From a virus, in the IMG/VR virus record IMGVR_UViG_3300011440_000020, positions 1 to 32,014 of that record: a stretch of DNA of 32,014 nt. One strand, 5' to 3'. This document shows, piece after piece, positions 4,103-29,837 of the stretch; positions within the stretch are counted from its first letter, which is position 1, and the number at the start of each line of letters is the position of its first letter. Made by a program: the position numbers and the translations under genes. The notes beneath the pieces are model-generated. The model saw only the letters and a list, made by a program, of their open reading frames with translations, ran no database searches and was not told where the DNA came from.

Positions 4103-5371
4103 GTGGAACTTCTCACACGGCTGCGCGACCAACGCCTCAACGTCTGGGAACAGGCCAAGGCGGTCGCATCAGCAGCCTCCGACCAGAACCGTGCCTTCAC
4201 CGGCGAAGAGCAAGCCCAATGGGAAACGCTCAACGCCGAACTCGAAGCGCTCGACCGGCGCATGAAGTCGATCGCCGACGGCGAGCAGCGTGCCAAGGAA
4301 ACCGAGGCCCGTTTCGCTGAGATCGAAGGCCGCCCCTCCGACAGCGGCAAGACGCCTGCGAAGCAGAACAGCATGAGCGAGCTCCGTTCGTTCCTGCTCG
4401 GCGAGCCCGGCGCCCCCCGCGCGTTCGAGGTTGAGGTCGCCGACCCGTCGACGGTCCCCACCTCGCAACGTGACCTGTCGAAACTGACGAACGCCGCCGG
4501 TGCGTTCACGGTGCCGACGTCGTTCTACAACCGGCTCGTCGAACACATGATCGAAGTGTCCGGTGTGTTGCAGGCCGGTCCAACCGTGCTGAACACCTCG
4601 GGTGGTGAGGTCATCCAGATCCCCAAGACGCTGACGCACACGCCGTCTCCGGCGATCGTGCTCGAGGCCGGCGCGATCTTGGAGTCGGACGGCACGTTCG
4701 GTCAGACCTCGCTCGGTGCGTTCAAGTACGGCCGCATGGTCCAAGTCTCGAGGGAACTCCTGACGGACACCGGCATCGACCTCACCGGCTACCTCGCCCG
4801 CAGTGTGGGTCGTGCGCTCGGCAACGCGTTCGGGTCCGATCTGATCATCGGGGGCGGCACCACCGCACCCCGAGGCATCCAGCTCGACGCCGCCGCAGGT
4901 GTCACCGGCCCCGCCGGCACCACCGTCACGTTCGGCAACCAGGCCACCGTCGGCCAAGGTTTCGACCTGATCATCTCGCTCTACCACAGCGTGATCTCGC
5001 CGTACCGCTCAAGCCCGTCGTGTGCGTGGGTGATGAACGACACCACCGCGTCGCTGGTGCGTCGGATCAAGAACACCGCCGGCGACTACGCGTGGCAGCC
5101 GTCGTTGACGGTCGGCAACCCCGACCTCATCTTGGGCAAGCCGGTGTACATCGATCCGTTCGTGCTGTCCCCGGCGGCGTCGGTCGAGTCGATCTTCTTC
5201 GGTGACTGGTCGCAGTTCTTCGTCCGCTACGCGGGCGGGATCCGCTTCGAGCGCTCCGACGACTTCGCGTTCGCGAACGACCTCGTCAGCTTCCGGGCGC
5301 TCCTCCGGGCTGACGCCGCGCTCGTCGACCTCACCGGCGCCATCAAGTCGTTTACCCACAGCGCCATCTGA
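4103..5371 (+). CDS. Major capsid protein, HK97 fold with N-terminal delta domain
   Basis: This 422-residue protein builds the icosahedral shell. Residues 1 to about 105 are charged and helical (coiled-coil delta domain, acting as internal scaffold). The HK97 fold follows, with recognisable segments AGAFTVPTSFYNRLVEHM, KYGRMVQVSRELLTD, GRALGNAFGSDLIIGGGT and a C-terminal FFGDWSQFFVRYAGGIRFE. It starts at GTG preceded by TAGGAG. The long hairpin-rich leader before it is the largest gap inside the head operon. Cleavage by the upstream protease is expected near residue 100, but the exact site is not visible. Confidence 0.93.
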   Translation: MELLTRLRDQRLNVWEQAKAVASAASDQNRAFTGEEQAQWETLNAELEALDRRMKSIADGEQRAKETEARFAEIEGRPSDSGKTPAKQNSMSELRSFLLGEPGAPRAFEVEVADPSTVPTSQRDLSKLTNAAGAFTVPTSFYNRLVEHMIEVSGVLQAGPTVLNTSGGEVIQIPKTLTHTPSPAIVLEAGAILESDGTFGQTSLGAFKYGRMVQVSRELLTDTGIDLTGYLARSVGRALGNAFGSDLIIGGGTTAPRGIQLDAAAGVTGPAGTTVTFGNQATVGQGFDLIISLYHSVISPYRSSPSCAWVMNDTTASLVRRIKNTAGDYAWQPSLTVGNPDLILGKPVYIDPFVLSPAASVESIFFGDWSQFFVRYAGGIRFERSDDFAFANDLVSFRALLRADAALVDLTGAIKSFTHSAI

Positions 5372-5374
5372 GCC

Positions 5375-5851
5375 GTGTTGTCGCCGGGGCCGACGTTCGA
5401 TCCGGAACGTTTGGCCTCGGCGTATGCACGGTTGCCGGGGTCGGCGTGGGCGTTGCCTGTCACGGACAACGACGACGTCAACCCCGGCTACCAGTTCGCG
5501 CCGCTGATCCAACAACGCGTCGCCAAAGACGCCGCCGCGCTGTTCGCGTTCGTGCTGGTCGAGTTCGCTCCGGTGTGGACGGCATGGTTGGCGAAGGTGC
5601 CGGCGCACGGTTTCATCGGCCCACACATCGACGAAGGTCCGTACCGCGAACGGTGGCATGTGCCGGTCCTGCCTTCCGGCACGTTCGACGGGGTCGAGGT
5701 ACAGGCGGGGGTGTCATTCCCCGTGGCTCACTGGGTTGTGCACCGGGTTGACAACCCGACGGACTCTCCTCGGGTTCATCTGGTTGTTGATCGCGATGTG
5801 TGGGTCGATGTTCCGTCGGCCCCGTTCCAACGAATCGAGGTAACACGATGA
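5375..5851 (+). CDS. Aspartyl/asparaginyl beta-hydroxylase-like 2-oxoglutarate/Fe(II) dioxygenase
   Basis: This 158-residue protein starts at GTG four bases after the capsid stop. The Fe(II)-binding pattern of the AspH family is present: HID at H84-D86 in GPHIDEGPYRERWHVPV, a distal histidine H123 in HWVVHRVDNPTD, and R133 in SPRVHLVVD as the candidate 2-oxoglutarate contact. Family members hydroxylate Asp, Asn or Pro side chains of proteins or free amino acids. Its position directly behind the capsid gene suggests, by inference, that a virion protein is the substrate. It overlaps the next gene by ATGA. Substrate and activity are unknown. Confidence 0.78.
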   Translation: MLSPGPTFDPERLASAYARLPGSAWALPVTDNDDVNPGYQFAPLIQQRVAKDAAALFAFVLVEFAPVWTAWLAKVPAHGFIGPHIDEGPYRERWHVPVLPSGTFDGVEVQAGVSFPVAHWVVHRVDNPTDSPRVHLVVDRDVWVDVPSAPFQRIEVTR

Positions 5852-6138
5852 AGGTCCGCATGTTGGTTGCACGGACGGGGACACATAACGGTGTGCCGTA
5901 CCCGGAGTACGGCGCTGTCGGCGAGGTCGATGATGACCACGCTGCGCAGCTGATCGCGAAAGGGTTGGCGGAGAAGCCGTCGGTGGGCAGCGTCGGCCCG
6001 CAGGAAGAAACCGAAGCGAAAGAAACACACGACGACGTCCACGAGTCCCAGGTGGAGGAACGCCCCGCACCTGATGTGGCTGAGACACGGCCGGCGATCA
6101 CGCGTGCCCGGTCGAAGACGTCGAAGCCGAAGCGGTGA
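5848..6138 (+). CDS. Small head-associated protein (hypothetical)
   Basis: This 96-residue protein has a compact N-terminal segment of about 45 residues (MKVRMLVARTG start, PEYGAVGEVDDDHAAQLIAKGLAE), resembling short SH3-like proteins found after the capsid gene in many siphoviruses. An acidic then basic disordered tail ends in SKTSKPKR. It starts at ATG inside the ATGA overlap with the dioxygenase gene. A head accessory role is inferred from position. The basic tail could contact DNA or a glycan-bearing partner, but nothing proves this. Confidence 0.55.
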   Translation: MKVRMLVARTGTHNGVPYPEYGAVGEVDDDHAAQLIAKGLAEKPSVGSVGPQEETEAKETHDDVHESQVEERPAPDVAETRPAITRARSKTSKPKR

Positions 6139-6141
6139 CCT

Positions 6142-6720
6142 GTGGCGATCCTTACGCTCCCGGAGTTCACCAGTTACGTCGGCTCCGAGATCGTCGCGAA
6201 CCAGACCGATCTAGCCGTCGACCTGGCGGCCGCTGAGTACGCGATCGGGAAGCACTGCCAACGAAAGTTCTTCGTGTCGTCCGCTACCACAGCGCGGGTG
6301 TACAAGCCGCCCTGCTACGACGACGTGCTGTACGTCGACGACTTCTCGACGACTGTGGGGCTGGTCATAACCGACAACGCTGTAGCCGTCGCGTCGACCG
6401 ATTACCAGTTGGAGCCGTTGAACGGCATCGATGCGGCCGGTGAGGTGGTGCCCTACACGGCGATTCGCCGTATCGCGGGGTCGTGGTACTGGTCCGGTGA
6501 CAAAGCAACAGTGTCCGTCACAGCGAAGTGGGGGTGGGCTGCGATCCCGGCGGATGTGGTCGAAGCCTGCCGGATCTTGGCGAAGGATCTTGCTGCTCAT
6601 CGCGACACCCGGTTCGGTGTTGCGGGGTGGGGTGAGTTCGGGTTGGTTCGGTTGCGTGCGAACCCGACCGTGCTCGGGCTGCTCAACGACAACATGCGCC
6701 CTGACCGGGTCGGAGTCTGA
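6142..6720 (+). CDS. Head-tail connector (adaptor), HK97 gp6-like
   Basis: This 192-residue protein starts at GTG with the typical LTLPEFTSYVGSEI N-terminus of phage head-tail adaptor proteins, followed by helical residues and a beta-rich centre (DDVLYVDDFSTTVGLVITD). These proteins form a ring below the portal. Order after the capsid protein and size support the call. The C-terminal segment (RVRA-like LVRLRANPTVLGLL) is also usual. It ends two bases before the methyltransferase gene. Confidence 0.72.
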   Translation: MAILTLPEFTSYVGSEIVANQTDLAVDLAAAEYAIGKHCQRKFFVSSATTARVYKPPCYDDVLYVDDFSTTVGLVITDNAVAVASTDYQLEPLNGIDAAGEVVPYTAIRRIAGSWYWSGDKATVSVTAKWGWAAIPADVVEACRILAKDLAAHRDTRFGVAGWGEFGLVRLRANPTVLGLLNDNMRPDRVGV

Positions 6721-6722
6721 CC

Positions 6723-7217
6723 GTGCATGACGCGGCGTGGGCGTACGTGTCCGACACCGTCGCCAGACGCGACCTCGACGGCGGCGACATCCTCGATCTG
6801 GGCGGCCGTGACGTGAACGGCACCACCCGCGCCCTGTTCCCGAGAGCGAACGTGTACATCACCGTCGACATCGAACCTCACCCGTCCGTCGACTACGTGG
6901 CCGACGCCGGCGACCTCGAGCTGGATGACCGGTTCGACGTCGTCGTGTCCACCGAATGCCTCGAACATACGAAGCGGGCGCCGGACATCGTCCGCTCCGC
7001 CTGGCGCCATCTGCGTGACGGCGGGGTGTTTGTGGCGACGATGGCCGGCGAAGGCCGTGAACCGCATTCGGCGGCGGGTGGTCCGGTCGGCGACGAGTAC
7101 TACCACAACGTCTCCTCCGATGAGCTCGGCGAGTGGTTGGAGGCGGCCGGGTTCGACGACTGGACGGTCGACGTCGCCGGCACCGACATCCGCTGCATCG
7201 CCGTCAGAGGAGTGTGA
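6723..7217 (+). CDS. Class I SAM-dependent methyltransferase
   Basis: This 164-residue Rossmann-type methyltransferase lies between two connector genes. SAM-binding motif I is ILDLGGRD at 23-30, the acidic end of strand 2 is VDIEP at 48-52, and motif IV region is DVVVSTECLEHT at 72-83, as in small-molecule and glycan methyltransferases. It lacks NPPY/DPPY and PCQ motifs, so it is not a DNA base methyltransferase of the usual kinds. Its place near a hydroxylase and a glycosyltransferase suggests modification of a virion protein or its sugar (inference). It starts at GTG and its stop overlaps the next ATG. Confidence 0.8.
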   Translation: MHDAAWAYVSDTVARRDLDGGDILDLGGRDVNGTTRALFPRANVYITVDIEPHPSVDYVADAGDLELDDRFDVVVSTECLEHTKRAPDIVRSAWRHLRDGGVFVATMAGEGREPHSAAGGPVGDEYYHNVSSDELGEWLEAAGFDDWTVDVAGTDIRCIAVRGV

Positions 7218-7663
7218 TGGCGCTCAACCTGACCGTGATCCGTGAAGCGTTGGCGGCGCAGATCACCGCCGGTACCGGCCGCGAGGTCCGCGGATACCCC
7301 TACCCGACAGGGTCGATCAACGAACTGCCATGTGTCGTGGTCCGCTGCGACGACGACTACGTCAACTATCACGCTACCCAAGGCGAAGCCGCCGACGTCG
7401 GATTGGTGATCGACGTGATGGCCGCCTGTCGGGCGTCGATCGAAGACGGTCTGCGGGTGTTGGATGAGTTGTTGTCGTCGGCTGCTGGTCAGCCGACGAG
7501 TGTGATCGACGCGATCGAGGCTGACGATTCGTTGGGTGGTGCCGTGGAACGTGTCGTCGTCGGGACAGCCGGTCAGCAGACAGGGTTCGGGACGGTGGAA
7601 GATGGCCGCCCGATCGGTGTCATCGCGTCGGTGCCGGTCGAGGTGTGGGTGAACCGTTCGTGA
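7217..7663 (+). CDS. Head-tail connector / tail terminator-like protein
   Basis: This 148-residue protein occupies the slot of tail terminator or head closure proteins. The start MALNLTVIREALAAQI and the following GYPYPTGSINELPCVVV segment resemble small connector proteins of actinophages that pair with the major tail protein. No catalytic motif is seen. It starts at ATG in a TGATG overlap with the methyltransferase and ends inside the glycosyltransferase start (GTGA). The exact connector role is inferred from order only. Confidence 0.55.
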   Translation: MALNLTVIREALAAQITAGTGREVRGYPYPTGSINELPCVVVRCDDDYVNYHATQGEAADVGLVIDVMAACRASIEDGLRVLDELLSSAAGQPTSVIDAIEADDSLGGAVERVVVGTAGQQTGFGTVEDGRPIGVIASVPVEVWVNRS

Positions 7664-8709
7664 AGGTTCTGATCGTCCACCCCGGCGCCCACTACTCGGT
7701 CGCCGACGTCCACAACGGTCTGGTCCGAGGGTTGAAAGCGAACGGCTGCGACGTCGGCGTGTTCAACCTCGACGACCGCATCGAGTTCTACACCCGAGCC
7801 CACGTCCAACAAGACGACGGCACCTACACCAAAGCGTTCTCCGACAACGACGCGATGCTGATGGCCGCCAAAGGCATCGAAACGGTGTGCTACGAGTGGT
7901 GGCCCGACGTAGTGATCGTCGTGTCCGGGTTCTTCATCCCGCCGCAGGTGTGGGGTGTGCTCACCCGCCGCCCCCATCACGTCGTCTACTGGTGCACCGA
8001 ATCACCCTACGAGGATGACAGGCAGGGGCAGCCCGGCCGGTACGTCGACACCGTCGTACTCAACGACCCCACCAACCTCGACCAGTTCGTCGCCGACATC
8101 AACCCGAACACCCACTACATCGGCCACAGCTACGACCCCGACGTCCACCACCGCGGCGGGCGGCGGCCGTCGCTCGCCTGCGACTTCGGATTTGTCGGCA
8201 CAGCGTTCCCGTCACGCATCGATTTCTTCGAGGCTGTCAACTGGGATGGGATCAACGTCAAGCTGGCCGGCAACTGGCAAGGACTCGAGCCGTCTTCGCC
8301 GCTGACCCCGTTCCTTCACGACGAGCCGGATCGCTGCATGGACAACATCGTCACCGCCGACCTGTACCGATCGTGTCGGGTATCGGCGAACCTGTACCGC
8401 AAAGAACACTCCGAGCATGGGCACGCCGAGGGTTGGGCGATCGGGCCGCGTGAGATCGAGCTCGCCGCGTGTGGGACGTTCTTTCTGCGTGAGCCCCGCC
8501 CCGAAGGCGACGCCTTGTTTCCGATGTTGCCGACGTTCACCGAATCAGATGAGTTCTCCGACAAGCTTCGCTGGTGGCTGGCCCGCCCGGAGCTCGCCGC
8601 AGAGGCCGCCACGCAAGCGTGTGCGGTGATTGCCGACCGGACGTTCACGAACACCGCAGCAGAACTGTTACGGATCGTGGAGCGGGTCGGCACCAGACGC
8701 GCCGCATAG
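7660..8709 (+). CDS. Glycosyltransferase, GT-B type, CgeB-like C-terminus
   Basis: This 349-residue protein begins MKVLIVHPGAHYSV, the first Rossmann strand of a GT-B glycosyltransferase. The C-terminal third contains EGWAIGPREIELAACGTFFLREPRPEGDALF split over the donor-sugar site, like CgeB/GT4-like enzymes. GTG 7660 was chosen because it overlaps the previous stop; an in-frame GTG at 7645 is possible. It sits directly upstream of the major tail protein gene. Mycobacteriophages are known to glycosylate capsid and tail proteins with enzymes encoded in structural modules, so a virion target is plausible. Host cell-wall glycan is the alternative. Confidence 0.8.
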   Translation: MKVLIVHPGAHYSVADVHNGLVRGLKANGCDVGVFNLDDRIEFYTRAHVQQDDGTYTKAFSDNDAMLMAAKGIETVCYEWWPDVVIVVSGFFIPPQVWGVLTRRPHHVVYWCTESPYEDDRQGQPGRYVDTVVLNDPTNLDQFVADINPNTHYIGHSYDPDVHHRGGRRPSLACDFGFVGTAFPSRIDFFEAVNWDGINVKLAGNWQGLEPSSPLTPFLHDEPDRCMDNIVTADLYRSCRVSANLYRKEHSEHGHAEGWAIGPREIELAACGTFFLREPRPEGDALFPMLPTFTESDEFSDKLRWWLARPELAAEAATQACAVIADRTFTNTAAELLRIVERVGTRRAA

Positions 8710-8752: not shown

Positions 8753-9151
8753 ATGGCTCGCATCGCCGGCCGCCAAGGCCGTCTGTACGCAAACCTCACA
8801 TCGGGCGGCACCGCCGAACCGATCGCGTTCCTCACGAACTGGTCACTCAGCGCGACGACGAACAAAATCAAGGTGACCGCGTTCGGTGACACGAACGAGG
8901 TGTACGTCGGCGGGATGCCCGACGCCCAAGGATCCCTCAGCGGCTGGTACGACAACGCCACCGTGCAGTTGTACACCGCCGCCGTCGACGGGGTGGCCCG
9001 CAAGATGTACCTGTACCCAGACAACACGCTCACCACCCAGTATTTTTGGGGGACAGCGATCTTCGATTTCTCGGTCGACATCGGTGTGGATGGTGCGGCA
9101 GCGATCTCGGGGTCGTGGGCTGCGGCGACACCGATCCTCAAGGCCGGCTGA
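8753..9151 (+). CDS. Major tail (tube) protein
   Basis: This 132-residue beta-rich protein starts at ATG with AGGGAG upstream after a 43-base gap, the longest in this stretch. The pattern of a short N-terminal strand, TNWSLSATTNKIKVTAFGDTN and a C-terminal ISGSWAA segment is typical of actinophage tail tube subunits. It is short compared with many tube proteins, and no Ig-like extension is attached. The separate leader suggests independent translation at a high level. Confidence 0.78.
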   Translation: MARIAGRQGRLYANLTSGGTAEPIAFLTNWSLSATTNKIKVTAFGDTNEVYVGGMPDAQGSLSGWYDNATVQLYTAAVDGVARKMYLYPDNTLTTQYFWGTAIFDFSVDIGVDGAAAISGSWAAATPILKAG

Positions 9152-14361: not shown

Positions 14362-14375
14362 GGGGATGCGCCACC
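14331..14375. promoter_or_regulatory. Bulged stem-loop upstream of the lysis operon
   Basis: GGTGGCGCA at 14331-14339 pairs with TGCGCCACC at 14367-14375. The next CCCC (14340-14343) pairs with GGGG (14362-14365), leaving one bulged A and an 18-base loop. It lies between the divergent lipoprotein promoter and the 14409 gene. It could end antisense transcription, mark the 5' end of the lysis mRNA or bind a regulator. Confidence 0.6.
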
Positions 14376-14408
14376 AACCCCCTGATCGTAGACCGCCGGG
14401 AGGTCCCG

Positions 14409-14621
14409 ATGGCGACCATCACTTTGACCATCCCCGACGCTGTCCTGCCCCGCGTGAGGGCCGCTCTCTGCACCCAAGCCGGACTCCCCGACTCGAACGC
14501 CAACGCCAAAGAGGCCGTCATCATGTGGATGAAAGCGACGGTGCAGGCGGTCGAGTATCAGGCGGCTGTCGCTGCCCGGGCCGACGTCGTCCAATCCGAC
14601 GTCACAGACATCGTCACCTGA
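14409..14621 (+). CDS. Hypothetical protein before the endolysin (70 aa)
   Basis: This 70-residue protein starts at ATG with GGGAGG upstream and overlaps the endolysin start (TGATG at 14619-14623). Its sequence, with TLTIPDAVLPRVRAALC and a following helix rich in Ala and Val, resembles short proteins found next to endolysin or tail genes in actinophages. No catalytic motif is visible. The tight coupling suggests a lysis or tail-tip accessory function, but this is inference. Confidence 0.6.
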   Translation: MATITLTIPDAVLPRVRAALCTQAGLPDSNANAKEAVIMWMKATVQAVEYQAAVAARADVVQSDVTDIVT

Positions 14622-15601
14622 TGCCCGCTACCGTTCGCGCAGGCGAGAAGGGCGTCGACTTCTCGTTCGCCAAACCGCCAGCGGCCCGACTGCTCGAGCT
14701 CGGCTACACGTTCGTTGTCGGCTACATCTCGATCCCGCCGGCGACCGCAGCGAAGAACCTGTCGAAAGCCCAGTGCGACGGCTACCTCGCCGCCGGGTTG
14801 AAGGTGTTGTTGGTGTGGGAGATGTCGGCGACCAGGCCGAACCTTGGCGCCTCTGCTGGTGCGACCGATGGCCGTAACGCCGCCTTCCAGGCCGCCGAGC
14901 GTGGCTATCCGCCTGACGTTCCGATCCTGACGGCGGTCGATACGAACACGACTGCTGTCAACGGTGACGCCCACCAGGATTATGTGGAGGCGTTCGCCGA
15001 TAACTGTTCGCCGTATCCGGTCGGGGTGTACGGCGACACCGACATCCTGACCCGCTGTAGCGGCCTGTGGCGGATCGGGTGGGTTCCTAACGCCTGGTCG
15101 TGGTCCGGTAGCTCACGCAAAGACGCAGAGGCCAAAGCGGCGACTGTAGGGGCACATGTGCTGCAACGCACCGGGTTCCACATCGACGGCCTGTGGGCGG
15201 TCGACCCGAACGACGCCATCGCCGACTTCCCCGCATGGGGCGTCGCCGTCGAACCACCGTCACCACCAACGACGCCGCCGGCTGAGCCGGTCGACGAGGA
15301 GGACCCAACCATGAGGATCAAGGCGGCAGGGCAATGGTTCGAGAAGGTGGGTGTGGATTTGCGGGCGATCGCGAACGGCGCCGAATACGCCGGGCTCGGT
15401 GGCAACGAAGTCCAGTTGACGAACCCGGAGATGGAGCAGCTGTTGGCGACGTGCCGGTACACGTACGGGGTGGCGAAGCCGGAGATGGGTGCGTCGTTCG
15501 TGGCGTTGTGGAACACGAAACGTGAACCCGCCCCCGGCTCGGGTGGTGGTGGTACCCCGGCGGAGTACACGATCCAGGGTGTAGCGCGACCTGTGCTCTG
15601 A
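14621..15601 (+). CDS. Endolysin, DUF1906 (Rv2525c-like glycoside hydrolase) type
   Basis: This 326-residue lysin has an N-terminal TIM-barrel domain of about 205 residues with hallmarks of the DUF1906 family: KGVDFSFAKPPAARLLELG at the start, FVVGYIS, KNLSKAQCDGYLAAGLKVLLVWE and a late IDGLWAVDPNDAIADFP. Such domains are thought to cleave cell-wall glycan. A Pro-rich linker near residues 210-230 leads to a C-terminal part of about 95 residues, probably wall-binding. A strong ribosome binding site inside the linker is aimed at Met231, so the C-terminal part may also be made separately. No signal peptide is present, so a holin is required. Confidence 0.85.
   Translation: MPATVRAGEKGVDFSFAKPPAARLLELGYTFVVGYISIPPATAAKNLSKAQCDGYLAAGLKVLLVWEMSATRPNLGASAGATDGRNAAFQAAERGYPPDVPILTAVDTNTTAVNGDAHQDYVEAFADNCSPYPVGVYGDTDILTRCSGLWRIGWVPNAWSWSGSSRKDAEAKAATVGAHVLQRTGFHIDGLWAVDPNDAIADFPAWGVAVEPPSPPTTPPAEPVDEEDPTMRIKAAGQWFEKVGVDLRAIANGAEYAGLGGNEVQLTNPEMEQLLATCRYTYGVAKPEMGASFVALWNTKREPAPGSGGGGTPAEYTIQGVARPVL
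15297..15313 (+). promoter_or_regulatory. Internal ribosome binding site and start inside the endolysin gene
   Basis: A perfect AGGAGG at 15297-15302 lies eight bases before an in-frame ATG at 15311 (Met231). Translation from here to 15601 would give a 96-residue product containing only the C-terminal domain. Several Gram-positive phage endolysins are known to make free wall-binding subunits in this way and assemble them with the full-length enzyme. Confidence 0.72.
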
Positions 15602-24503: not shown

Positions 24504-24667
24504 GTGTTGTGCCGTTGACGGATCCGGTGGATGACATCCATCGGTGGTCGTGTGCGGAGGTGGCGATCATCCGCGGCCACTATGCGGACGCCCAACGCCG
24601 CGTCGACGCCGAATACCGCAAGTTCGCCGCAGACATCGAACACATCGCCGCACAGGTCCAACCATGA
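24500..24667 (+). CDS. Hypothetical early protein (55 aa)
   Basis: This 55-residue helical protein starts at GTG overlapping the previous stop (GTGA) and ends in an ATGA overlap with the C5 methyltransferase gene. The helix CAEVAIIRGHYADAQRRVDAEYRKF is amphipathic and could form a coiled coil. Function is not recognised; its fixed link to the methyltransferase suggests co-expression. Confidence 0.5.
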   Translation: MSVVPLTDPVDDIHRWSCAEVAIIRGHYADAQRRVDAEYRKFAADIEHIAAQVQP

Positions 24668-25647
24668 CCTACACCGTGGGTTCGCTGTTCTCAGGCATCG
24701 GAGGGATCGACCTCGGCCTCGAACGCGCCGGGATGACTGTTCGGTGGCAGTCCGAGAACGACCCGTACTGCTGCCGCATCCTCGCGAAGCACTGGCCGCA
24801 CGTCCCGAATTTGGGTGATGTGACCGCGATCGATTGGAGCACTGTTGAACCCGTCGACCTCATCTGCGGCGGCTACCCCTGCCAGCCGTTCTCCCTCGCA
24901 GGGGCTCGAGCCGGAGAAACCGACGCCCGACATCTTTGGCCGTTCTTCGCCGCCGCCATTCGCCACCTACGACCCCGATACGCGTTGCTGGAGAACGTCC
25001 CAGGGCACCTTTCCCTGGGGTTCGGACGAGTACTCGGAGACTTGGCCGAGTGCGGGTACGACACGGAGTGGGATTGCATTCCGGCTGCCGCCGTTGGTGC
25101 CCCGCACCTCCGCTACCGCGTCTTCGTTGTTGCATACCCCCACCGCGAAAGCGAACCAGGCTTCACCGTCGATGCGGTCACGGGACCCAGGGTCGTGGTT
25201 CCCAACACCAACGGCCACACCGTACGGCAGCAACCAGTCGCCATCTTCGGGCGCCGCTGTGCGACCGTCGCTGCAGGCAATGGCAACAACTGGGATGTGG
25301 CCGACACCTCGAGCGTCCCCGAACGAGAATCGGCAGACCAAGCCGACCCCGTCACAGTTGGCCGGGAAGCACGGGCGATCGCTTGCGGCGGAGGTGAACT
25401 GGCGGACGCCGAAGGCGAGCGATGCCGCTCACTCGGGCCGTACAGCGCCGGCGAAGCCCGGGCAGACAACATCGCTGGACATGCAGGTGAACTCGCAGGA
25501 GGACACGCCTGGGCAGTTGAACCCGATGTGGGTCGAGTGGCTGATGGGGTTCCCCATCGGGTGGACCGACTGCGAGCCCTCGGCAACGCCGTAGTCCCCC
25601 AAGTAGCCGAACTCATCGGCCGGCGCATCCTCGAGGCAGCCGCGTGA
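24664..25647 (+). CDS. C5-cytosine DNA methyltransferase (Dcm type)
   Basis: This 327-residue enzyme transfers a methyl group from SAM to C5 of cytosine in DNA. Motif I is LFSGIGGIDLGLERAG at the start, motif IV has the catalytic Cys in GGYPCQPFSLAG, motif VI is LLENVPG, motif VIII is PHLRYRVFVVAY, and motifs IX/X appear as RVDRLRALGNAVVPQVAELIGRR at the end. The target-recognition part is about 110 residues. It has no restriction partner, so it probably protects phage DNA from host restriction. Its C-terminal half overlaps a long second frame described separately. Confidence 0.92.
   Translation: MTYTVGSLFSGIGGIDLGLERAGMTVRWQSENDPYCCRILAKHWPHVPNLGDVTAIDWSTVEPVDLICGGYPCQPFSLAGARAGETDARHLWPFFAAAIRHLRPRYALLENVPGHLSLGFGRVLGDLAECGYDTEWDCIPAAAVGAPHLRYRVFVVAYPHRESEPGFTVDAVTGPRVVVPNTNGHTVRQQPVAIFGRRCATVAAGNGNNWDVADTSSVPERESADQADPVTVGREARAIACGGGELADAEGERCRSLGPYSAGEARADNIAGHAGELAGGHAWAVEPDVGRVADGVPHRVDRLRALGNAVVPQVAELIGRRILEAAA
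24845..25594 (+). CDS. Overlapping frame inside the C5 methyltransferase gene (249 aa), possible second protein
   Basis: In the +1 frame a stop-free run covers most of the methyltransferase gene. Its translation contains YDPDTRCWRTSQGTFPW, YSETWPSAGTTRSGIAFRLP, WPTPRASPNENRQTKP and ends NPMWVEWLMGFPIGWTDCEP. These WPTP-rich segments and the EWLMGFPxGWTD end look to me like proteins I recall from phage genomes beside or inside Dcm genes; I cannot check this here. The first start is only a TTG (24845), so expression might need frameshifting or a non-standard start. It may also be a conserved shadow. Confidence 0.35.
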   Translation: MNPSTSSAAATPASRSPSQGLEPEKPTPDIFGRSSPPPFATYDPDTRCWRTSQGTFPWGSDEYSETWPSAGTTRSGIAFRLPPLVPRTSATASSLLHTPTAKANQASPSMRSRDPGSWFPTPTATPYGSNQSPSSGAAVRPSLQAMATTGMWPTPRASPNENRQTKPTPSQLAGKHGRSLAAEVNWRTPKASDAAHSGRTAPAKPGQTTSLDMQVNSQEDTPGQLNPMWVEWLMGFPIGWTDCEPSATP

Positions 25648-28119: not shown

Positions 28120-28440
28120 GTGCCGATCTCACCGACGCAGCTCACCCTTCGGCACCTCCGCGCCGAAGGGTGGCCGCTCGTCGAAGTCGTCGAACACTGG
28201 AACCCCCACGCCCGCATCCGCCAAGACCTCTTCGGCTTCATAGACGTCATCGCCGTACGCCCCAACCACACACTCGCCATACAAGCAACCACCGCCCCCA
28301 ACGTCGCCTCAAGGATCACCAAGATCGCCGACCACCCCAACATCGGCCCCGTACGCGAAGCCGGCTGGCAGATCGAAGTCTGGGGCTGGAAAAAGGTGAA
28401 GGGCCGCTGGACGCTGCACCGACGAATCGACATCTCATGA
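28120..28440 (+). CDS. Small PD-(D/E)XK-type nuclease, resolvase-like
   Basis: This 106-residue protein starts at GTG. RIRQDLFGFIDVIAVRPN followed by LAIQATTAPNVASRITKI is the pattern of a widespread small phage nuclease group: an Asp in the first strand and Q-x-T in place of the usual E-x-K, then VREAGWQIEVWGWKK near the end. Members are thought to cut branched or replicating DNA. It overlaps the following methyltransferase by ATGA, so nuclease and methylase are made together. Confidence 0.7.
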   Translation: MPISPTQLTLRHLRAEGWPLVEVVEHWNPHARIRQDLFGFIDVIAVRPNHTLAIQATTAPNVASRITKIADHPNIGPVREAGWQIEVWGWKKVKGRWTLHRRIDIS

Positions 28441-29837
28441 GCCTCGAGTACCGGATAGGCGACGTCTTCGACCGGCTCGCCGAAATCCCCGACGGCACCA
28501 TCGACCTGATCGTCACCTCGCCGCCGTTCCTGGCGTTGCGGTCCTACCTCCCCGCCGACCACCCCGACAAAGGCAAAGAGATCGGTTCGGAGGCGACCCC
28601 GGCGGCGTTCATCGACACCCTCCTCGAGCTCACCGCCGAGCTCGGCCGGGTGCTCGCCCCGCACGGCTCCCTCTGTGTCGAACTCGGCGACACCTACAGC
28701 GGGAGCGGGGGAGCCGGCGGCGACTACAACCCCGACGGGCTACGAGACGGCCAGGCGAAGTTCGACGGGTCTGCGTCACGGCACAAGGCGAACACCACCC
28801 GCTACACCTACGGCGAGAAGGACGGCAGCCGTATCGACGCTGGGCCCAGCAGCTCGCAGATCCGCAACGGCGGCGGCTCCGGTTGGCCGCTCGCCAAGAG
28901 CCTCACCGGCATCCCGACGCTGTACCCCTGGTCGCTCGCCTACGGCCGCAACCTCCTACGACGACCCCTTCTAACTCAACACCAGGCAATGACATACGCA
29001 GGAGTGATGGGCGAAACGGTCGGCTGGCGACGGGCACGCAACTTCATCAACACATTCGCCCCGGACCGCCACGACTTCCCGCCGTGGCGGATCCGCAACA
29101 TCATCGTCTGGGCACGCCCCAACCCGCCCGTCGGGGCGCTCGGTGACAAGTTCCGGCCCGCCACCTCATACATCACCGTCGCCTGCAAAGGCCCCCGCAG
29201 GTTCTTCGACCTCGACGCCGTACGCACCGACAACCCGCGCGTCAACGAAGACCCAGGCGGCTACCGCATGGTGTCGGGCGAACCAACCCACAACGCCGGA
29301 CCGCGATCACAGAACCCGGCTGGTGCGCCGCCGCTCGACTGGCACACCGACCTCGAAGACGGCGACTGGCTCTGGAAACTCCCCACCCAACCCTACAAAG
29401 GCTCCCACTACGCCACCTTCCCCCTCGAACTCCCCACCCGCCTCATCACCGCAATGTGCCCGTTGAAGGTTTGCACCGTGTGCGGGAAACCGAGTGAGCG
29501 GATCACGGATGCGGAGTATCACTCTCAACGCAATGGAGGCATGAAGGACGGCGAGATCATCCCGCCGGGCGGATGGCGATCGGGACGAGGCGGCACCGAC
29601 AGCGGCTTAAGCACCGGAAAGCTGATGGCGACTAAAGCTATTAAAACTCTCGGCTGGTCGGATTGCGGACACAACTCCTGGCGCACCGGCGTCGTCCTCG
29701 ACCCTTTCGCCGGCTCCGGCACCACCCTCCAAGCCGCCCAGAACGTCGGACGCCACGCCATCGGCATCGACCTCGACCCCCGCAACGCTGATTTGGCGCG
29801 GGACAGGGTCGGCATGTTCCTCGAGGTCAACCCGTGA
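28437..29837 (+). CDS. N6-adenine/N4-cytosine DNA methyltransferase, beta class order
   Basis: This 466-residue enzyme has the catalytic TSPPF at 27-31 and SAM-binding DPFAGSGTT near 422-430, i.e. catalytic motif first, as in beta-class enzymes. SPPF allows either N4-C or N6-A methylation. A Cys cluster near CPLKVCTVCGKPSERI and SDCGHNSW looks like a zinc ribbon common in phage methylases. Bases about 29505-29660, within this cluster, use codons rare elsewhere (TTA, ATT, ACT), suggesting local exchange. It probably blocks host restriction. Confidence 0.88.
   Translation: MSLEYRIGDVFDRLAEIPDGTIDLIVTSPPFLALRSYLPADHPDKGKEIGSEATPAAFIDTLLELTAELGRVLAPHGSLCVELGDTYSGSGGAGGDYNPDGLRDGQAKFDGSASRHKANTTRYTYGEKDGSRIDAGPSSSQIRNGGGSGWPLAKSLTGIPTLYPWSLAYGRNLLRRPLLTQHQAMTYAGVMGETVGWRRARNFINTFAPDRHDFPPWRIRNIIVWARPNPPVGALGDKFRPATSYITVACKGPRRFFDLDAVRTDNPRVNEDPGGYRMVSGEPTHNAGPRSQNPAGAPPLDWHTDLEDGDWLWKLPTQPYKGSHYATFPLELPTRLITAMCPLKVCTVCGKPSERITDAEYHSQRNGGMKDGEIIPPGGWRSGRGGTDSGLSTGKLMATKAIKTLGWSDCGHNSWRTGVVLDPFAGSGTTLQAAQNVGRHAIGIDLDPRNADLARDRVGMFLEVNP

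What the first reader, a model, noticed from the sequence alone, without database searches (positions are those of the whole stretch)
5375..8709. Hydroxylase, methyltransferase and glycosyltransferase inside the head-tail module: possible virion decoration system
An AspH-like dioxygenase (H84, D86, H123, R133) follows the capsid gene, a class I methyltransferase sits between connector genes, and a GT-B glycosyltransferase precedes the tube gene. In sequence, hydroxylation could create an OH acceptor, the glycosyltransferase add a sugar and the methyltransferase cap it. Glycosylated virion proteins are known in mycobacteriophages; I know of no described system that also uses an AspH-type hydroxylase.
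Basis: partly seen in the sequence, partly recalled or inferred. Interest (0 to 1): 0.8.

Follow-up and report, generated by a model that had tools for sequence, protein, structure and literature searches.

The report
Capsid-linked hydroxylase, tube-linked glycosyltransferase
This uncultured phage carries a hydroxylase gene that recurs directly after the capsid gene in many related phages, and a sugar-transferring enzyme gene that almost always sits beside the tail-tube gene, so it probably modifies its own particle in at least two separate ways rather than by one three-step pathway.

Summary
The three genes are real and intact, and are under purifying selection. The hydroxylase has an AspH/proline-hydroxylase fold (model pLDDT 96) with an intact HxD...H...R site. 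The single-pathway reading is not supported, because the genes assort independently. (1) The AspH-like gene lies downstream of the major capsid gene, directly or behind an inserted ORF (often HNH), in four capsid groups. These include a complete M. abscessus prophage with no annotated glycosyltransferase. (2) The glycosyltransferase belongs to a family of 347 IMG/VR loci and sits immediately upstream of one tail-tube family in 55 of 56 dereplicated loci. Searching from the tube instead, it is immediately upstream in 75 of 79 and absent from only one. It has no match among 50,697 phage records. (3) The methyltransferase is optional (20 of 40) and sometimes overlaps the glycosyltransferase. All three occur together here and in one second lineage (L048). 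Best reading: separate virion-tailoring enzymes, each tied to its own structural partner (hydroxylase with capsid, glycosyltransferase with tube, methyltransferase probably on the sugar). Virion glycosylation is known in mycobacteriophages. A capsid-linked AspH-type hydroxylase is, as far as I could find, undescribed. Substrates are inferred, not shown.

The parts
4103..5371 (+). Major capsid protein (HK97 fold), proposed substrate of the hydroxylase
   Evidence: Pfam Phage_capsid E=1.4e-51; phrog_10 major head protein
5375..5851 (+). AspH/proline-hydroxylase-like Fe(II)/2-oxoglutarate dioxygenase, 158 aa; metal ligands H84, D86, H123; 2OG arginines R93 and R133
   Evidence: dN/dS about 0.2 in most pairs
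5848..6138 (+). Small head-tail ORF overlapping the hydroxylase stop (ATGA); alternative substrate candidate
   Evidence: phrog_2616 E=3e-9, phrog_2322 head-tail connector E=7e-5; overlap read
6142..6720 (+). Head-tail adaptor
   Evidence: phrog_442 E=5e-15
6723..7217 (+). Class I SAM-dependent methyltransferase, 164 aa; probable sugar O- or protein methyltransferase
   Evidence: PF13489 E=1.7e-12; phrog_32762 E=2e-16; overlaps or abuts GT in some relatives
7217..7663 (+). Tail terminator
   Evidence: phrog_17840 E=2.6e-9
7660..8709 (+). GT-B glycosyltransferase (PF13524), 349 aa, proposed to glycosylate the tail tube
   Evidence: PF13524 47.4 bits, cut-off 25; model pLDDT 91.9 matching GT4-type GT-B enzymes; tube immediately downstream in 55/56 loci
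8753..9151 (+). Major tail (tube) protein, 132 aa, proposed glycosylation substrate
   Evidence: phrog_10528 E=1e-8; similar to annotated tail tube / major tail proteins; GT immediately upstream in 75/79 tube-first loci

Best explanation
The window encodes separate virion-tailoring enzymes, each tied to its own structural partner. The AspH-like enzyme is an Fe(II)/2-oxoglutarate hydroxylase, expressed with the capsid gene, that hydroxylates a side chain of the major capsid protein (or an immediate head neighbour). The GT-B enzyme transfers sugar to the tail-tube protein encoded directly downstream of it. The methyltransferase most likely O-methylates that sugar and is optional. Shown here: enzyme classes, intact hydroxylase site, purifying selection, hydroxylase-capsid linkage over several capsid groups, near-obligate GT-tube linkage, independent assortment. 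Inferred: catalytic activity, substrates, benefit to the virion.
For: Hydroxylase: confident DSBH model whose top PDB hits are proline cis-4-hydroxylase and AspH. H84, D86, H123, R93 and N127 are invariant, R133 nearly so. H84-R93 spacing (9) and H123-R133 spacing (10) equal AspH H679-R688 and H725-R735 (numbers read from PDB titles). The gene follows the capsid in the window, L003-L010, L012 and L028 (group A), in L002, L029-L034, L037, L042, L043 and L045 (group B), in L041 (C) and L046-L048 (D), directly or with an inserted ORF that is HNH by Pfam in L029, L034 and L037. The hydroxylase tree splits by capsid group with one change each for A and B, reached in 0 of 500 shuffles. GT: tube immediately downstream in 55/56 dereplicated loci; starting from the tube, GT immediately upstream in 75/79 and within about 1.2 kb in three more. 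MT upstream in 20/40 GT loci, abutting or overlapping GT in 6. Precedent: cluster O mycobacteriophage glycosyltransferases downstream of an O-methyltransferase are stated to modify capsid and tail tube (PMC11600133, citing Freeman 2023).
Against: No activity or mass data. Adjacency does not prove a substrate. Capsids 72-73% identical to the window's lack the hydroxylase (L013 cleanly; L014 with another ORF in its place), so it is dispensable. No capsid residue tracked the hydroxylase convincingly. Within group A the pairwise distances of hydroxylase and capsid do not correlate by rank (Spearman -0.12). L049 carries a relative after what looks by eye like a tail protein, not a capsid. Loci kept by the tube search are those nearest a query built from GT-linked tubes, which favours linkage.
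Confidence: 0.55

Rival explanations
1. One sequential pathway: the hydroxylase makes a hydroxyl acceptor, the glycosyltransferase adds a sugar to it and the methyltransferase caps it, on one virion protein.
For: All three genes are present in the window and in L048, in nearly the same order.
Against: Hydroxylase-bearing records lack the GT (0/15) and GT-bearing records lack the hydroxylase (0/29). prophiGD02-2 is complete, has the hydroxylase and no annotated glycosyltransferase. L019 has MT and GT without the hydroxylase. The hydroxylase stays with the capsid and the GT with the tube.
Confidence: 0.07
2. The hydroxylase acts on something that is not a virion protein (free amino acid, host protein or host-defence target), and the slot after the capsid gene is only a tolerated insertion site for accessory genes.
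For: Closest folds include free-proline hydroxylases. The slot also receives other genes: HNH ORFs in many loci and a lysozyme-like ORF in L006 (by eye).
Against: Across capsid groups the same gene recurs there and its tree follows the capsid group, which a random cargo slot would not predict.
Confidence: 0.25
3. The hydroxylase modifies another head protein, such as the small protein encoded by the overlapping downstream gene (5848-6138), rather than the major capsid protein.
For: ATGA overlap with that gene in the window; matching end/start overlaps in L003-L005 and L028.
Against: The small gene persists without the hydroxylase in L013 and L014, and is separated from it by another ORF in L006.
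Confidence: 0.13
4. The glycosyltransferase modifies host surface or phage DNA rather than the tube (superinfection exclusion or DNA protection).
For: Phage glycosyltransferases with such roles are known (general knowledge); GT-B fold and PF13524 do not fix the acceptor.
Against: Near-strict, reciprocal adjacency to a single tube family; distant annotated tubes without an annotated adjacent GT show that the tube does not need it as a family.
Confidence: 0.12

Closest known systems
Virion glycosylation in mycobacteriophages (Freeman et al. 2023, cited in PMC11600133)
   Same: Phage-encoded glycosyltransferases with a neighbouring O-methyltransferase; stated targets are capsid and tail tube
   Different: Here one GT gene sits directly upstream of the tube gene in a family with no match in 50,697 phage records; the published cluster O case has three tandem GTs; no hydroxylase is mentioned in the passages read
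Human aspartyl/asparaginyl beta-hydroxylase (AspH, PF05118)
   Same: DSBH fold, two histidines, equal spacing of the two 2OG arginines
   Different: Stand-alone 158 aa, has the HxD aspartate, below the Pfam cut-off, and no EGF-like substrate is seen in the capsid
L-proline cis-4-hydroxylase / proline 3-hydroxylase / PolD
   Same: Best structural matches in the PDB (4p7w, 1e5r, 9blq)
   Different: Those act on small molecules (general knowledge); 13-19% identity only
prophiGD02-2 gene 86 'oxidoreductase' (Mycobacterium abscessus prophage)
   Same: 45% identical, directly after the capsid gene
   Different: Capsid of another group; no annotated glycosyltransferase in the genome
Asparaginyl beta-hydroxylases and other 2OG oxygenases of cyanophages (PMC3037559)
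   Same: Phage-encoded oxygenases of this broad class
   Different: Discussed there in relation to 2-oxoglutarate and nitrogen metabolism, not capsid genes

Membership tests
Asp_Arg_Hydrox (PF05118) / AspH family | Pfam gathering score reached | tested here: not met
   13.5 bits, cut-off 22.6 for the window protein; 15/21 relatives match at E<=0.1, best 1.6e-5
Asp_Arg_Hydrox (PF05118) / AspH family | Double-stranded beta-helix fold | tested here: met
   Model pLDDT 95.9; 5apa TMq 0.66, 4p7w TMq 0.68
Asp_Arg_Hydrox (PF05118) / AspH family | Two iron-binding histidines and 2OG-binding arginines at matching spacing | tested here: met
   H84/H123 invariant, R93 invariant, R133 nearly invariant; spacings 9 and 10 as in AspH
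Asp_Arg_Hydrox (PF05118) / AspH family | Hydroxylates Asp/Asn in EGF-like domains | not testable with these tools
   No activity data; the capsid shows one cysteine and the tube none by inspection, so no EGF-like domain is expected
Fe(II)/2OG dioxygenase superfamily | HxD...H facial triad plus 2OG arginine | tested here: met
   H84, D86, H123, R133 in 21-sequence alignment
GT-B glycosyltransferase (PF13524) | Pfam gathering score and GT-B fold | tested here: met
   47.4 bits, cut-off 25; model matches GT4-type GT-B structures such as 3mbo, 2jjm
Phage virion glycosylation system | GT gene linked to structural genes | tested here: met
   55/56 GT-first and 75/79 tube-first loci
Phage virion glycosylation system | Glycan on capsid or tube in purified virions | not testable with these tools
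   Needs mass spectrometry
Class I SAM methyltransferase | Family score reached | tested here: met
   PF13489 47.8 bits, cut-off 27
Single hydroxylase-GT-MT decoration system | The three genes co-occur across relatives | tested here: not met
   GT in 0/15 other hydroxylase records, hydroxylase in 0/29 other GT records; all three only in window and L048

The most novel reading that the evidence does not exclude
A phage-encoded 2-oxoglutarate hydroxylase dedicated to the HK97-fold major capsid protein: a protein-hydroxylation step in phage head assembly or stability, carried through several capsid groups of uncultured phages and M. abscessus prophages.
Probability: 0.42. Interest if true: 0.75.

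Novelty: new variant of a known kind. Interest (0 to 1): 0.55.

Why it matters
Hydroxylation of a phage capsid would be a new kind of virion maturation step and would link head chemistry to oxygen and 2-oxoglutarate in the host. The tube-bound glycosyltransferase would show that virion glycosylation extends to a large set of uncultured phages and would predict its target directly from gene order. Both can be tested, the hydroxylase in a named complete prophage.

Tried and rejected
Single pathway: rejected by independent assortment. Search for a capsid residue that tracks the hydroxylase: in group A the near hydroxylase-free capsids (L013, L014) differ at N143, D387 and others, but they look like one lineage and so one contrast; in group B D336 is shared by all nine hydroxylase-bearing capsids and is absent from 12 of 13 others, but L019 has it without the hydroxylase; the two sites do not obviously correspond, so no site is claimed. 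Correlation of hydroxylase and capsid distances within group A: inconclusive. Genome-contig scans: the first found nothing; the second gave only distant proteobacterial loci, not followed. Freeman 2023 full text is not held. Paper searches for phage capsid hydroxylation returned nothing relevant.

Full report
Observation. Pfam and PHROGs place the capsid, adaptor, tail terminator and tube around them. The hydroxylase is weak by Pfam (PF05118, E=0.064, below its cut-off) but convincing by structure: a 21-sequence alignment (A3) gave a model with pLDDT 95.9, and its best PDB matches are L-proline cis-4-hydroxylase and human AspH. H84, D86, H123, R93 and N127 are invariant. The spacings H84-R93 (9) and H123-R133 (10) equal H679-R688 and H725-R735 of AspH, residues named in the titles. 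Unlike AspH, which lacks the acidic ligand (my own knowledge), this protein keeps the full HxD...H triad. dN/dS is about 0.2 for the hydroxylase in most pairs (0.46 in one) and about 0.2 for MT and GT.

Hydroxylase and capsid. In the phage collection only two records (M. abscessus prophages prophiGD02-2 and prophiGD90-1) have a relative, 45% identical, and in prophiGD02-2 it lies directly after the capsid gene. In IMG/VR, profile searches gave 33 loci. Where enough upstream sequence is held, the capsid gene lies upstream in group A (window-like), group B (prophage-like), group C (L041) and group D (L046-L048), directly or behind an inserted ORF. Pfam confirms HNH in L029, L034 and L037; the other inserts were judged by eye or are unidentified (L043, L045). 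One remote relative (L049) follows what looks by eye like a tail protein. Two very remote ones (L050, L051) carry an extra C-terminal domain and lie near what looks by eye like a terminase gene. The hydroxylase tree separates by capsid group, one change each for A and B, 0 of 500 shuffles as low. L013 shows a capsid 72% identical with no hydroxylase between capsid and the next gene, so the gene is accessory. Cultured phages with group-B-type capsids such as Bunnybear and Brujita also lack it.

Glycosyltransferase and tube. The GT family has 347 relatives in IMG/VR and none in 50,697 phage records. After dereplication the tube ORF lies immediately downstream in 55 of 56 loci with room. Starting from the tube instead, GT is immediately upstream in 75 of 79, within about 1.2 kb in three more (one with an HNH-like ORF between), and absent in one short-flanked locus. 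The tube is related to annotated tail tube and major tail proteins of a Roseobacter phage and Prochlorococcus phages, which have no annotated glycosyltransferase beside it. The GT model (pLDDT 91.9) matches GT-B enzymes of the GT4 type. Donor and acceptor cannot be read from this.

Methyltransferase. It lies upstream of GT in 20 of 40 loci with room, and abuts or overlaps GT in 6, for example L048. It also occurs near other glycosyltransferases: L024 has, after its capsid region, a family 2 GT, a CmcI-type methyltransferase and this MT. This fits methylation of a sugar but does not show it.

Do the three belong together? Only the window and L048 hold all three. L048 has capsid, hydroxylase, small ORF, adaptor, tail terminator, MT, GT and tube in a row, with a capsid of another group. 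Otherwise the modules separate: GT absent from 15 hydroxylase records, hydroxylase absent from 29 GT records (most records may be fragments, and those empty searches had no positive control), and the complete prophiGD02-2 genome has the hydroxylase with no annotated GT. L019 has MT, GT and tube close to the window's with a group-B capsid and no hydroxylase. So the hydroxylase-to-sugar-to-methyl chain is not required by the data and is unlikely.

Known background. Mycobacteriophage virion glycosylation is established (Freeman 2023, as cited in PMC11600133; the paper itself is not held). AspH-like proteins occur in phages and giant viruses and asparaginyl beta-hydroxylases in cyanophages (PMC3037559). 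I found no paper on capsid hydroxylation in phages, within a library that lacks most subscription papers.

Verdict. The genes are real, the enzyme classes are well supported, and the physical linkages are strong. The substrates and the benefit to the virion are inferred.

Noticed in passing
L003, L007, L010, L029, L034, L037-L040 (between capsid and hydroxylase); L011, L014 (after capsid, no hydroxylase seen): HNH-type endonuclease ORFs recur at the 3' end of the capsid gene in several lineages (Pfam-confirmed in L029, L034, L037; by eye in the others), suggesting a homing hotspot.
   Followed up: partly
L050:6695-7741, L051:6761-7807: Remote AspH-like domain carrying an extra C-terminal domain (acetyltransferase-like by eye), near what looks like a terminase gene.
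   Followed up: no
L049:6854-7375: Divergent hydroxylase relative that follows a probable tail protein gene (judged by eye, no Pfam match) instead of a capsid gene.
   Followed up: no
L024:3396-6342 and L021:1-3880: Other sugar-related clusters near the head genes: family 2 glycosyltransferase, CmcI-type and class I methyltransferases (L024); three family 2 glycosyltransferases before the adaptor (L021).
   Followed up: partly
L006:4405-4851: A lysozyme- or transglycosylase-like ORF (by eye) inserted between the hydroxylase and the small head-tail gene.
   Followed up: no
window 24544-25647 and 28170-29837: Two DNA methylase genes (C5-cytosine and N6/N4 types) in the right half of the window.
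   Followed up: no
window 14366-15601: Protein with an Rv2525c-like glycoside-hydrolase-like domain downstream of the tail genes.
   Followed up: no
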